Shown here: one piece after another, positions 123-5,164 of the stretch | How positions within the stretch are numbered: the first letter of the stretch is position 1 | How the letters are laid out: every line of letters starts with the position of its first letter | Source of the DNA: a bacterium | GTDB lineage: Bacteria; Blakebacterota; Blakebacteria; Blakebacterales; Blakebacteraceae | Length of the DNA: 5,170 nt | Direction of reading: 5' to 3' | NCBI GenBank assembly: GCA_025774205.1 | Contig: JALGWK010000503.1 | Location: 1-5,170 of the forward strand | Position numbers and translations under genes: made by a program | The notes under the pieces: model-generated | The model's input: the letters and a program-made list of their open reading frames with translations, nothing else | Database searches by the model: none | Told to the model about the DNA's origin: nothing

Positions 123-1052
123 TCAGAACTCGGTGACTCTGAAGAGCGCTGGTTCCATGATCTTCAGGGTGATACCCAGCGGCAGTTCAATCCTTGGCTC
201 GACCAGGGTGAGGCCATCGGGTTGTATCAGCCTCATATCGAGCACGAGCCGGATATCATCCTTGACCAGAGCTTCGATCAGACGCGTGCCGCCCTGTACC
301 GTGACGGCGGCTGATCGCGGTTCGGCCAGGTAGCGTTCCGGCCGGCTGGTGCCGATGAAGTTGATCTGGACATCCTCGAAGAGCCGTTCCCCCAGTTTCT
401 GGATATCGTGCACAACCCTGACCGTCGTGGGAAAGATGGAAAGGTTGTAGATCTGAGGAACCAGGACCGGCATTTCGACATCGACCGACTCCCTCACCCG
501 GCGGGGGAGCCTCAGAGTATCCGTCTGTACGGATGTGAGTGCTGCCAGATCACTCGCCGGACCGATGAGGGTGACCGAATCGGGAACCGCCGCCACCTCA
601 CCGACCAGGGTATAACCGGGAGCTAATTCGATCTCGATCGGTGTCACTACCGGAAGACGGACCTGCTCCAGTCGGTCGAGAATGAGAACGAGCTCTTGAG
701 GCGACAGGACCGCCAGTACCTCCAGGTTGAGCGCATCCGGATACACCACGTTCTCGACGCCCAGCTGCAGGAGGCCGCGTGAACGGACATCGCTGGCATC
801 CACCCGCAGGGAGAGATCGCGCCACGGCAGGGTCAGAAGACGTTTGCCGTTGCCCCGGAACCTGACCGCGCAGGTCTCGGGGATCTCGTCGGCGATCACA
901 TACCCCTCGGCAATCCCCACCACCTGCAAAGGGATCTCGAAAATCCATTCGTAGGTATCTTTCTCTGTGGCGATGTGGAACCACAGGAGGAGAGCTACCG
1001 TGAGCGACCCGATCTTCAAGCCGGCATTCTTGGTCAGTATGCTGCGATCCAT
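123..1052 (-). CDS. ybbR: YbbR/CdaR-like membrane-anchored protein
   Basis: This is a 309-residue protein with a basic N-terminus, one membrane segment at about residues 12-28 (L-K-I-G-S-L-T-V-A-L-L-L-W-F-H-I), and then a beta-rich extracytoplasmic part. The start N-A-G-L-K-I-G-S-L plus hydrophobic segment is typical of YbbR-domain proteins. The rest can be divided into about three YbbR-like repeats (roughly 35-125, 130-215, 225-305), recognisable by I-P-L-Q-V / L-P-V-V openings and later V-x-V-x-G segments. In Firmicutes, YbbR (CdaR) binds and modulates the diadenylate cyclase CdaA. No cdaA lies next to this gene, since upstream is a 430-bp intergenic gap, so a role in c-di-AMP control is not supported here. 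Start choice: ATG at 1052 is taken. A TTG two codons earlier (1058) is possible and sits better spaced from a GGAAG. The product lies upstream of tsaD, probably in one operon. The family call is good; the function is unknown. Confidence 0.85.
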   Translation of the reverse strand: MDRSILTKNAGLKIGSLTVALLLWFHIATEKDTYEWIFEIPLQVVGIAEGYVIADEIPETCAVRFRGNGKRLLTLPWRDLSLRVDASDVRSRGLLQLGVENVVYPDALNLEVLAVLSPQELVLILDRLEQVRLPVVTPIEIELAPGYTLVGEVAAVPDSVTLIGPASDLAALTSVQTDTLRLPRRVRESVDVEMPVLVPQIYNLSIFPTTVRVVHDIQKLGERLFEDVQINFIGTSRPERYLAEPRSAAVTVQGGTRLIEALVKDDIRLVLDMRLIQPDGLTLVEPRIELPLGITLKIMEPALFRVTEF

Positions 1053-1298
1053 GGGCAAGTGGGACCGCTTCCGTCTATTTCTTGATAGGGGCTGGACCTA
1101 TATGACTGCCGACACTCACCTCACCATTGTCAATCCTCAGATGGTAACCACAATCAGGACTTGAGCAGACCCACCGGCGTTACACTTCAGACATTCAGGG
1201 AAAACAGCTTCCATAAGAGTTGTTCACCTCCCGTCCTCGCAACCACAACATGTAACCGGATCGGTGGGCTATCGGCAGAGAGCGTGGGGAGTATAGGC

Positions 1299-1484: not shown

Positions 1485-3165
1485 ATGAACGCCGCCCTGC
1501 TCCTTCTGTTCGCAATCATCGCCCTGCTGGCCGGTTACATTTTCTATGGCCGCTTTCTCAGCCGCCGCCTGGGCATCGATCCCGACCGGGCCACTCCGGC
1601 CCACACCCGGGAGGACGGTATCGACTATGTGCCGGCCCGCGCACCGGTACTCTTCGGTCATCACTTCGCCTCAATCGCAGGAGCGGCACCTATCATCGGT
1701 CCGGTCACAGCGGCTGTCTTCGGTTGGGTCCCGGTCCTTCTCTGGGTGCTGATCGGATCGATCTTTCTCGGCGGAGCGCACGACATGTCGAGCCTTGTCG
1801 CGAGCATCAGGCACCGGGGCAACTCCATCGGGGAGATCATCGAGGAGAATATCGGCGTCAGCGGCAAGACCTTCTTCCTGATCTTCGCGCTGGCCACACT
1901 GATCCTGGTAATTGCCGTCTTCGCCGCCATTGTGGCCCGAACCTTCACCGAGAATCCGGCCGCCGCGTCGGCTTCGATCCTCTTCATCCTGCTGGCGGTG
2001 GCCTTCGGACAGGTCCTCCACCGGATGAAGCTCCCGCTGGGGGCCTCAACCCTCGTCGGGGTGATTCTTCTCTTCCTCTGTGTCTGGCTCGGCCTGGAGT
2101 TTCCCCTGCAGGCCGGGAGCAACCTCTGGCTCTGGCTCCTGATGGGGTACATCCTCATCGCCTCGATCACTCCCGTCTGGGCCCTGCTCCAACCACGGGA
2201 TTACCTTAATTCCTTTCTGCTCCTTGCGCTCCTCGGAGGCGCGGTGGTTGGGATCGTGGTGCAGCAACCGGTCATCCGCCTGCCCGCTTTCACCGGGTTC
2301 AACAATGACCAGCTCGGATTCATGTTCCCGGTGCTCTTCGTTACGGTGGCCTGCGGGGCTATTTCCGGATTCCACAGCCTGGTCTCGAGCGGTACTACCG
2401 CCAAACAGCTGAACAGTGAACGGGATGCCCGGGTAGTCGGCTACGGGGGGATGCTCACCGAGGGTCTGCTGGCCGTGGTCGCGCTGGCAACCGCCGCTGT
2501 CCTCACTTCCGGTGATTACGCCGCTCGCTTCGCGGCCGGTCCGCGGCTTCGTCTCCTCGCTGGGGATCGATCCCGTCGTCGGTACCTCGTTCGCCGCGCT
2601 GGCTGTCTCGGCCTTCGCGCTCACCACCCTCGACACCGGCACGAGGCTCGGCCGCTACGCCTTCGCCGAGCTGTTCACCCATACCACCACCACGACCGGC
2701 GGGGAGGGCACCTCCGCAGGCACCACCACTTCCATACCCCCCGCCTGGACCCAGAACCGGTGGTTCTGCTCCGGCCTGATCGTCGCGGCGAGTGCCCTGC
2801 TGGCATTTTCAGGCCAGTGGCAGGTGATCTGGCCGATCTTCGGCAGCGCCAACCAGCTGCTGGCCGCCCTGGCCCTCCTGGCGGTGAGCGCCTGGCTGGC
2901 CCGTCTGGGGAAACGGGCCCTCTTCACCCGGATCCCGATGTACTTCATGTTCACGGTGACGCTGACAGCCCTGATCACCTTCGCCTACCGGAATCTCGCT
3001 GACGGCAAGATCTTCATGGGCTTCCTGAGTATCCTGCTCTTCACCCTGGCGGTGGTTCTGGCAATCCTGGCTTTCCGGTCTTTACGGAACATCTCGCCGA
3101 CTTCACCACCGTCCACACCTGAGAGCGAATCGGTGCCGGTTGAGGATTCGATGGAAGGGAGTTGA
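1485..3165 (+). pseudogene. cstA: CstA-family carbon starvation / peptide-pyruvate transporter, frameshifted
   Basis: CstA proteins are polytopic inner-membrane carriers linked to peptide and pyruvate uptake during carbon limitation (known from E. coli). The N-terminal part carries the family hallmarks: D-G-I-D-Y-V-P at 44-50, L-F-G-H-H-F-A-S-I-A-G-A at 56-67, F-L-G-G-A-H-D at 94-100, then alternating membrane segments through about residue 350. The C-terminal part (S-S-L-G-I-D-P, F-A-A-L-A-V-S-A-F-A-L-T-T-L-D-T-G-T-R-L, later F-G-S-A-N-Q-L-L-A-A-L-A-L) is equally typical but lies in the next frame (+1 relative to the first). The switch must occur near 2535-2545. Without it, the first frame runs on to 3002 as an Arg/Pro/His-rich tail that is not CstA-like. 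Joined, the parts give about 559 residues, a normal length for the short CstA type, though a few residues seem missing at the joint. The start ATG at 1485 has only a weak GGA upstream. The break could be a real mutation, a sequence error at a GC hairpin, or, less likely, programmed frameshifting. Confidence 0.88.
2531..2545. repeat. Perfect GC-only hairpin at the cstA frame break
   Basis: CGCGG (2531-2535) and CCGCG (2541-2545) form a five-pair all-GC stem with loop CCGGT. It coincides with the point where CstA homology passes from the first frame (Y-A-A-R-F-A-A-G) to the next frame (V-R-G-F-V-S-S-L-G). Such hairpins are known spots for polymerase slippage, small deletions and base-calling errors. 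The sequence shows the coincidence; the cause is inference. Confidence 0.6.
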
Positions 3166-3199
3166 ACACTTCCCGCAACTGATCGCCGGGGAATTCGTT

Positions 3200-4008
3200 A
3201 TGCCTCAAATACAGATCAATAATGCCGCCATCCATTACGAAGAACACGGGGATGGCCCCGAGTCTATTGTCTTTGCCCACGGTTTTCTCTGGAGTGGGCA
3301 CATGTTTGAACAGCAGGTGATGGCGCTGAAAGACCATTATCGATGCATCACCTTCGACTTCAGAGGACAGGGTCAGAGTGAAGTATCCAGATCAGGTTAC
3401 GACCTTTGTTCCCTCTGCGAAGATACCGCTGACCTGATTGAATCATTGCAGTGCGCACCGTGTCATTTCGTCGGACTCTCGATGGGTGGCTTCGTCGGCA
3501 TGCGCCTGGCCATTCACCGCCCCGATCTATTGAAATCACTCATGCTCCTTGAGACTTCAGCCGACCCGGAATCGGAGCATAGCCTTGGCCAATATCGTCT
3601 CCTTGGGTTCATCGCCCGTTGGTTCGGGTTGAGAATCATTGCCAACCGGGTGATGGAAAGCAACTGAGGGAAGAATGGCGCCGTCGATTGATATCCAATA
3701 ATCGTCTCGGCGTAACCCGAACTCTTAAAGGGATCATCAATCGTGAGGGAATCCATGACCAGCTGAATTCCATCGCGCTCCCGACTCTGATCGTTGTTGG
3801 CGACCAGGATGTAACGACGCCTCCAGCCATGGCGGAGCGGATGCAGGCAGGCATCCCCAATTCAAGGCTGGTGATCATCCCCGGCGCCGGACATACCTCG
3901 ACCATCGAGGAGCCGGAGGCCGTAAGCGACGCTCTTAAAACCTTTCTCGACAGTCAGACCGGAGGAACAGATTCGGGCGCGGTTGAGTCCGACTACCCGG
4001 TGATGTAG
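3200..4008 (+). pseudogene. Alpha/beta-hydrolase fold protein, frameshifted
   Basis: The first frame starts at ATG 3200, seven bases after a GGGGA (3188-3192). It carries the oxyanion-side H-G-F at 27-29, D-F-R-G-Q-G-Q-S at 53-60 and the nucleophile elbow G-L-S-M-G-G with Ser94, and it stops at 3665-3667 after V-M-E-S-N. The second frame, shifted by one base back, continues from about 3658 (K-Q-L-R-E-E-W-R-R-R-L) to the stop at 4006-4008. It holds the acid motif V-V-G-D-Q-D-V-T-T-P-P and the histidine motif P-G-A-G-H-T-S-T-I-E-E-P. The whole Ser-Asp-His triad is thus present but not in one frame. Joined, the parts give about 268 residues, slightly short for the family. From memory of relatives, about a dozen residues of the cap region appear missing at the joint, so the lesion may be a small deletion and not a single-base indel. 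The substrate is unknown (esterase/lipase-like or ring-cleavage-type hydrolases share this pattern). It lies 34 bp after cstA, so the two may have formed an operon. An upstream in-frame start at 3140 is unlikely because it overlaps cstA and lacks homology. Confidence 0.85.
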
Positions 4009-4039
4009 ACTGATACAAGACTGATACCAGATTAATACA
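4007..4039. repeat. Three tandem 11-bp direct repeats (iteron-like) between hydrolase and integrase
   Basis: The units are AGACTGATACA (4007-4017), AGACTGATACC (4018-4028) and AGATTAATACA (4029-4039), head to tail with no spacer. The second differs from the first by one base and the third by two. The preceding 11 bases keep TGAT in the same register, perhaps a decayed fourth copy. The repeat length is about one helical turn, as in arrays where a protein binds the same DNA face repeatedly. The first unit overlaps the hydrolase stop codon. The role is unknown: a regulator site, an integrase-binding site, or a simple slippage product. Confidence 0.75.
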
Positions 4040-4063
4040 AAGCTACCCCCGCTCATCTCCCCG

Positions 4064-4076
4064 GGCACCAGGTGCC
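4064..4076. repeat. 13-bp perfect palindrome upstream of the integrase
   Basis: GGCACC (4064-4069) and GGTGCC (4071-4076) flank a single A. As DNA this is a symmetric dimer-binding site candidate. As RNA it would form a short stem, but no T run follows, so it is a poor terminator. It lies about 100 bp before the integrase start and 25 bp after the 11-bp repeats. Confidence 0.5.
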
Positions 4077-4163
4077 TCTGTAAGCCCCCCGGCGAACATC
4101 TGCCCCTCTGGTGAACTACTTGACGCCCTGCTATCTGGATCCCGCGCAGACAGCAGGCATATC

Positions 4164-4169
4164 GAGGAG
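4164..4169 (+). promoter_or_regulatory. Strong ribosome binding site of the integrase gene
   Basis: GAGGAG stands 8 bases before the ATG at 4178. This fixes the start there over the internal ATG ten codons later, which has no comparable purine-rich site. Confidence 0.75.
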
Positions 4170-4177
4170 TTATTCAG

Positions 4178-5164
4178 ATGGAGAATCCGAATATTCCTGC
4201 CACGAGGATGAAACTTCTGAGCCAGGTGCGTGAGGCGATCCGCGTCCGTAATTACAGCCGCCGGACCGAGCAGACCTACGTGATGTGGGTCAAACGCTTC
4301 ACACGATTCCATGACCTGCAACACCCCTCCGAGATGGCCGAACCTGAGATCAACGCGTTCCTGACGTACCTGGCGGTCGACCGGAAAGTGAGCGCCTCGA
4401 CCCAGAATCAGGCTCTCAGTGCTCTGCTCTTCCTCTACCGCCACGTGCTGAACCGACCAATCGGTGAACTGGGTGACGTGATCCGCGCCCAACAGCCAAA
4501 ACGACTGCCAATCGTCATGACCCGGGATGAGGTCAGGACAGTCATGCGACAACTCTCGGGTGAGAAATGGCTCATTGCCGCCCTTCTCTATGGCTCAGGA
4601 CTCCGCCTCATGGAATGCCTGCGCCTGCGGATCAAGGATGTCGACATCACTTCAAGCCAGATCACCGTCCGGGACGGTAAAGGCAACCAGGACCGGGTCA
4701 CGATGCTTCCGACAACCCTTCATGACCCTTTCGAGGAGCACCTCAAGCATGTGAAGGCCATACACGAGCAGGATCTGAAGGAGGGCTACGGACGTGTTTC
4801 CCTGCCTCATGCCCTGGCGCGGAAATATCCGAACGCCGGTTCCGAATGGTGCTGGCAGTGGATATTCCCCCAGAAGAGAAGATGGAGAGACCGGCAGACC
4901 GGTCGTCAAGGCCGTCACCACATGGATGAGTCGATCATGCAGCGGGCGGTCAGGGAGGCGGTCAGAAACGCCGGCCTCACAAAACGAGCTACCTGTCACT
5001 CCTTTCGACATTCATTCGCGACCCACCTGCTCGAGGACGGCTACGACATCCGCACCATCCAGGAACTGCTCGGTCACAAGGATGTGAAGACGACCATGAT
5101 CTACACCCATGTCCTCAACCGCGGTCCCACCGGGGTCCGCAGTCCCATGGACCGGATCGCATGA
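4178..5164 (+). CDS. intI: Integron integrase (IntI-family tyrosine recombinase)
   Basis: This is a 328-residue, intact protein. IntI enzymes recombine attI and attC sites to insert and excise gene cassettes, acting on folded single-stranded attC DNA (family knowledge). The N-terminal SAM-like core-binding domain spans about 12-95 (Y-S-R-R-T-E-Q-T-Y, then [11 protein letters not shown]). The catalytic domain has Arg143 in S-G-L-R-L-M-E, Lys168 in D-G-K-G-N-Q-D-R, His274 and Arg277 in C-H-S-F-R-H-S-F, His300 in L-L-G-H-K-D-V, and the nucleophile Tyr309 in [10 protein letters not shown]. The insert that separates IntI from XerC/D is present at about 203-250: [22 protein letters not shown], and H-H-M-D-E-S. 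The end G-V-R-S-P-M-D is also IntI-like. The length matches the family (about 320-340). The gene is co-oriented with the hydrolase upstream, and no attC or attI core is seen in the 169-bp gap before it. The stop overlaps a possible next ATG (ATGA). It is an environmental, non-class-1 type by sequence feel; its exact class is unknown. Confidence 0.95.

What the first reader, a model, noticed from the sequence alone, without database searches (positions are those of the whole stretch)
4178..5164. Intact integron integrase without a visible cassette platform on its 5' side
All six catalytic residues and the IntI-specific insert are present, so the enzyme looks functional. In the usual integron layout attI and the cassettes lie next to the 5' end of intI and point away from it. 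Here, 4009-4177 has no GTTRRRY/RYYYAAC core, and the gene upstream points towards intI. So the array is either beyond the right edge (the reverse-integrase layout known from some spirochaetes and planctomycetes) or absent. A chromosomal IntI in an unusual host would be worth classing.
Basis: partly seen in the sequence, partly recalled or inferred. Interest (0 to 1): 0.6.

Follow-up and report, generated by a model that had tools for sequence, protein, structure and literature searches.

The report
Reverse-layout chromosomal integron cut at contig end
The gene is a real integron integrase; its gene-cassette array was not missing but lies on the gene's other side, on a different contig of the same genome, making this an intact-looking 'reverse' integron of a kind already known, in a poorly sampled bacterial lineage.

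Summary
4178-5164 encodes a full IntI (TIGR02249, 490 bits against a cut-off of 265), and nothing attI- or attC-like lies on its 5' side. The window is a whole contig that ends 6 bases after the intI stop.

Synteny places the missing side. In two MAGs of the sister genus, cstA is followed directly by an HTH gene, AbrB/PIN, a phosphodiesterase, dksA and dnaK. In this MAG that block is on contig C470, which continues from the HTH gene into a cassette array (three attC copies, toxin-antitoxin cassettes) and breaks inside an IS110 element. The window and C470 are therefore the two flanks of one chromosomal locus. The attCs lie 3' of intI on its strand: a reverse integron. A second species of the genus shows both flanks too.

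IntI relatives agree: the protein falls in a clade (SH-aLRT 97) whose detected main arrays are all 3' of intI, and 37 of 46 members carry an attI-like motif there.

Reverse integrons, and their IntIs forming one sub-clade, are already published: a new member, not a new kind. Not shown: the intI-to-array junction, this genome's own attI, and activity.

The parts
4178..5164 (+). intI: integron integrase of the reverse-layout clade, 328 aa, intact
   Evidence: TIGR02249 490 bits; catalytic residues and IntI insert; tree; dN 0.147, dS 1.58 against G001 over 111 codons
5165..5170 (.). end of contig; attI and the first cassettes are predicted beyond it (attI-like motif mostly 125-181 nt past the intI stop in relatives)
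   Evidence: contig length; attI-like motif in relatives; no other contig overlaps this end
4009..4177 (.). 5' side of intI, without attI core or attC, as expected for the reverse layout
1485..3165 (+). cstA (carbon starvation protein family), left chromosomal flank of the integron; reading frame broken by a 26-nt deletion relative to G001
   Evidence: PF02554 on both halves; intact in G001; deletion aligned
3199..4008 (+). alpha/beta hydrolase gene, frameshifted between about 3619 and 3667; present in G000 only, no attC; not a recognisable cassette
   Evidence: absent between cstA and intI in G001
123..1058 (-). YbbR-like protein, conserved left flank (beside cstA in G001 and G003 too)
   Evidence: PF07949

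Best explanation
The window is the left end of a sedentary chromosomal integron of the 'reverse' layout, inserted between cstA and an HTH-regulator gene. Order: cstA, intI (+), [attI about 165 nt past the intI stop, not in the window], cassettes whose attC sites read on the intI strand, last array gene(s), HTH gene, AbrB/PIN, phosphodiesterase, dksA, dnaK. IntI most likely works as in other integrons: it recombines the folded bottom strand of attC with attI, so that a new cassette enters at attI just 3' of intI. Shown here: IntI identity, catalytic residues and purifying selection; the 5' side being bare; attC sites in the genome; synteny placing both flanks at one locus; clade-wide 3' arrays and 3' attI-like motif. 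Inferred: that the gap between C400 and C470 holds attI, further cassettes and the IS; that attI exists in this genome; that IntI is active.
For: IntI identity. Empty site in the sister genus: cstA next to HTH, AbrB/PIN, phosphodiesterase, dksA, dnaK in G002:C379 and G003:C281. The same block on G000:C470, followed by attC3-HigBA-attC2-MNT/HepT-attC1 in the orientation expected for 3' of intI. G001 repeats both flanks: cstA-intI on C285, dnaK to HTH plus serine hydrolase plus a weak attC on C238. Clade layout and tree. attI-like motif 3' of intI in 37 of 46 relatives. Contig ends: 30 of 46 close relatives end within 2.5 kb 3' of intI, 2 of 46 on the 5' side.
Against: The junction intI-attI-first cassette is not assembled and no contig overlaps the window's end. 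Only one of the three attCs on C470 scores well with the general model (40.5 bits; attC3 9.5 bits, attC1 found by DNA similarity only). The G001 attC on C238 is weak (22 bits) with poor R boxes. The sister genus has attC-like sites although this locus is empty there, so not every attC in the family belongs to this locus.
Confidence: 0.9

Rival explanations
1. Lone integrase (In0-like): intI has lost its own array, and the attC copies on C470 are a separate CALIN (attC cluster without integrase) that happens to lie next to the same chromosomal block.
For: The junction is not assembled; the genus has attCs on several contigs; a lone intI and CALINs are common in general (established knowledge; CALINs in PMC9668308).
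Against: Both contigs end at one empty site that is contiguous in G002 and G003, with attCs in the orientation a reverse integron predicts; G001 shows the same two flanks. Two unrelated elements at one site in two species would be a coincidence.
Confidence: 0.07
2. Ordinary layout: attI and the array lie 5' of intI, and the array was lost or displaced by the alpha/beta hydrolase insertion.
For: The hydrolase is an insertion between cstA and intI that G001 lacks.
Against: In G001, without the hydrolase, the 237-nt gap between cstA and intI holds no attC; no attI-like motif lies 5' in the window; clade members do not have the ordinary layout.
Confidence: 0.02
3. Binning artefact: the window or C470 comes from another organism.
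For: The MAG is fragmented: 527 contigs, 86% complete, 4.8% contamination.
Against: C400 is about 76-81% identical to G001 across ybbR, cstA and intI. C470 aligns with G001:C238 over 5.7 kb at 78%, and its dnaK-to-HTH block is syntenic with G002 and G003.
Confidence: 0.01

Closest known systems
Reverse (inverted) integrons, e.g. [quoted passage not shown]
   Same: intI and cassettes transcribed in the same direction; first cassette and attI immediately downstream of intI; chromosomal.
   Different: Other host lineage and other attC sequence; attI and junction not seen here; IntI nearest to clade members from many phyla (best 72% identity), with the spirochaete IntIs of the set in the same clade but more distant.
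Archaeal integrons (PMC9668308)
   Same: attI reported immediately downstream of intI.
   Different: Archaeal IntIs form their own clade in that paper; they were not placed in the tree made here.
Ordinary integrons: V. cholerae IntIA superintegron and class 1 mobile integrons
   Same: Same enzyme family, catalytic residues and IntI insert; IntI1 is about 51% identical.
   Different: Those have divergent intI and cassettes with attI on the 5' side (established knowledge).
IS1111-attC group of insertion sequences (reference in PMC11187229)
   Same: IS110/IS1111-type transposase placed at one end of attC.
   Different: Only part of the element is assembled; subgroup, seekRNA and target rule not tested.

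Membership tests
IntI integron integrase | Over the curated TIGR02249 cut-off, below Xer cut-offs | tested here: met
   490 bits against 265; Xer models not reached
IntI integron integrase | Tyrosine-recombinase catalytic set R-K-H-R-H-Y and the IntI-specific insert | tested here: met
   R143 K168 H274 R277 H300 Y309; insert about 206-252
IntI integron integrase | Falls among IntI, outside Xer, in a tree | tested here: met
   (quick tree, SH-aLRT only)
Reverse integron | attC array 3' of intI, on the intI strand | tested here: met
   By synteny of C400 and C470 with the empty site in G002/G003 and with G001; direct junction not assembled
Reverse integron | attI 3' of intI | not testable with these tools
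   Window ends 6 nt after intI; attI-like motif seen only in relatives
Reverse integron | IntI belongs to the inverted sub-clade | tested here: met
   49-row clade, SH-aLRT 97, whose labelled rows all have 3' arrays, spirochaete and planctomycete IntIs included
Ordinary (divergent) integron | attI and opposite-strand cassettes 5' of intI | tested here: not met
   No core, attC or attI-like motif at 4009-4177
Functional integron | attC x attI recombination by this IntI | not testable with these tools
   Needs an assay
IS1111-attC insertion sequences | IS110/IS1111 transposase inserted at a fixed place at one end of attC | tested here: inconclusive
   DEDD_Tnp_IS110 hit; the same IS-attC junction in G000:C470 and G001:C133; full element and subterminal repeats not available

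The most novel reading that the evidence does not exclude
A rarely sampled bacterial lineage carries a vertically kept reverse integron at a fixed chromosomal site, with family-wide attC sequence, a similar toxin cassette in two genera (Gp49-type, G001 and G002), and an IS110-type element that sits in attC at the same base in two species beside different cassettes; integrons may not have been reported from this lineage.
Probability: 0.5. Interest if true: 0.4.

Novelty: new member of a known kind. Interest (0 to 1): 0.3.

Why it matters
It shows that an apparently orphan integrase in a fragmented MAG can be an assembly effect, and that its array can be placed by synteny with an empty site. For this IntI clade the attI and cassettes should be sought 3' of intI, where contigs tend to break; a survey that looks only at the 5' side, or only within one contig, will undercount such integrons. 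It also adds one more poorly sampled lineage to those with chromosomal integrons.

Tried and rejected
Rfam gave no match in the window. Model R1's only hit in the own genome, C331:14833-14915, lies inside a long ORF read here as mfd-like (no profile run) and was rejected as chance; R1 also missed the C470 array, found only with the second model R2. MAFFT alignments of full attCs were too poor for a model, so one with masked loops was used. An overlap between the window's end and another contig was sought and not found. Considered and rejected: the alpha/beta hydrolase as a cassette (no attC on either side); the protein as XerC/D or a phage integrase; contamination.

Full report
What was checked. 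The ORF at 4178-5164 encodes a 328-aa protein that matches the integron-integrase model TIGR02249 over its whole length at 490 bits, cut-off 265, and stays far below the Xer cut-offs. The nearest solved structure by sequence is V. cholerae IntI, 2a3v. The six catalytic residues and the IntI insert are in place. The 5' side 4009-4177 holds no core site, and no attC is found in the window with two covariance models. The window is a complete contig, C400 of a 527-contig, 86%-complete MAG, and it stops 6 bases after intI.

Where the array is: relatives. The 80 best relatives from named genome contigs (56-72% identity) were scanned for attC with a hand-written finder. Sites of one geometry, found with no filter on side or strand plus two, gave covariance model R1; R1 hits gave model R2. 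Over about 1 Mb, hits beside intI fall into two kinds almost without exception: 3' of intI on its strand, or 5' of intI on the other strand. Exceptions: L075 and L067 have same-strand attCs 5' of intI. In a tree with Xer outgroups the window's IntI lies in a 49-row clade (SH-aLRT 97) in which every row labelled with an array has it 3' of intI; over the whole tree 25 rows have 3' arrays and 11 have 5' arrays, and the 3' label needs a single change (mean of 500 shuffles 12.9). Caveats: quick tree, many open forks, and a few labels rest on weak hits (for L053, E 3 with R1 and no hit with R2). Independently, contigs of 46 close loci end within 2.5 kb on the 3' side of intI in 30 cases and on the 5' side in 2, while for the other 34 loci the numbers are 4 and 25: arrays break assemblies, and they do so on the 3' side here.

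attI in relatives. A motif like TTATANGGAACCRYATAAACATTGTTAGRY occurs mostly 125-181 nt past the intI stop, on the intI strand. With leave-one-out scoring 37 of 46 clade members reach 9 bits or more 3' of intI; the best score on the 5' side in those 46 is 7.2, and the best 3' score among the other 34 loci is 4.7. Its GTT is the expected exchange point by analogy with known attI sites; that it works as attI is inferred. A paper on archaeal integrons reports attI directly downstream of intI (PMC9668308).

Where the array is: this genome. R2 finds one strong attC in the MAG, C470:7678-7774 (E 1.2e-6). Its DNA finds two further copies on C470 (6890-6977, 8373-8473) and attC-like copies in G001, G002 and G003. 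The C470 array carries toxin-antitoxin cassettes (HepT/nucleotidyltransferase; Gp49/HTH), then a zinc-ribbon gene, an NAD-binding protein and a serine-hydrolase-like gene, and ends in an IS110-type transposase. The bottom strand of attC2 folds into the usual attC hairpin with an extrahelical base (z -2.3 as DNA).

The link. In G002 and G003, MAGs of the sister genus, cstA is followed directly by an HTH gene, then AbrB/PIN, a phosphodiesterase, dksA and dnaK (G003 shows AbrB and PIN as clear ORFs). In G000, cstA is followed by the hydrolase and intI on C400, while dnaK, dksA, phosphodiesterase, PIN/AbrB and HTH are on C470, immediately followed by the serine hydrolase and the cassette array. 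C400 and C470 are thus the two sides of one insertion. Turned to continue from C400, C470 presents its attCs on the intI strand. Same-genus G001 repeats the picture: cstA-intI on C285, and dnaK to HTH, the same serine hydrolase and a weak attC (22 bits) on C238, aligned to C470 over 5.7 kb at 78%. This is the reverse layout, shown by synteny; the junction itself is unassembled.

How it most likely works. By established knowledge of integrons, IntI recombines a folded attC bottom strand with double-stranded attI, so new cassettes enter next to attI. Here that would be just 3' of intI, with cassettes read in the same direction. dN 0.147 and dS 1.58 over 111 codons between G000 and G001 intI indicate purifying selection. 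Activity is not tested.

What is known. Reverse integrons are named and described for Treponema denticola (PMC7691350); Spirochaetota IntIs are generally in reverse orientation (PMC9668308); [quoted passage not shown] The correlation seen here is therefore a confirmation. The case is a new member of a known kind. Its host lineage could not be named; its family is represented by four MAGs, and the other relatives returned share only the domain.

Open points. The hydrolase between cstA and intI is in G000 only and is not a recognisable cassette. cstA has a 26-nt deletion and the hydrolase a frameshift; assembly error and decay cannot be told apart. The sister genus has attC-like sites although this locus is empty there, so attCs also exist elsewhere in the family.

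Noticed in passing
L176 (G000:C470) 8368-8500 and L177 (G001:C133) 140-272: An IS110-type element (DEDD_Tnp_IS110) sits inside the R'' end of an attC at the same base in two species, beside different cassettes; it resembles the attC-targeting IS1111 group.
   Followed up: partly
window 2512-2560: cstA reading frame broken by a 26-nt deletion relative to G001, where the gene is intact; assembly error or pseudogene.
   Followed up: partly
window 3200-4008: Alpha/beta hydrolase gene with a frameshift between about 3619 and 3667, inserted between cstA and intI in G000 but absent there in G001.
   Followed up: partly
L202 10058-10366 (G001:C60) and L179 3598-3867 (G002:C261): Very similar Gp49-type toxin genes next to attC-like sites in two genera, as if one cassette were shared.
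   Followed up: no
L202 near 10410-10447 and L203 near 9900-9933 (G001:C60, C100 ends): Two attC 3' halves preceded by the same sequence near contig ends, as if a second repeated element were inserted in attC.
   Followed up: no
L178 (G003:C126) 4388-4483; L179 (G002:C261) 3216-3244 and 3951-4015; L204 (G002:C191) 1173-1201: attC-like sites in the sister genus, where the cstA-HTH site is empty and no IntI passed the cut-off; CALINs or another integron site.
   Followed up: partly
L075 (Acidobacteria MAG) 1822-1919 and 4001-4100; L067 8373-8433: Same-strand attCs 5' of intI as well, so intI seems to lie within or behind an array.
   Followed up: no
L141 (IMG/VR contig), intI at 2164-3126: A contig classed as viral encodes an IntI 69% identical to the window's, with an attC 3' of it on the same strand; it may be a bacterial fragment.
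   Followed up: no
L160 (Gemmatirosa kalamazoonensis 1.1-Mb plasmid) 7616-12652: A dense reverse-layout array of at least 11 attCs 3' of intI on a large plasmid that has no annotation in this collection.
   Followed up: no
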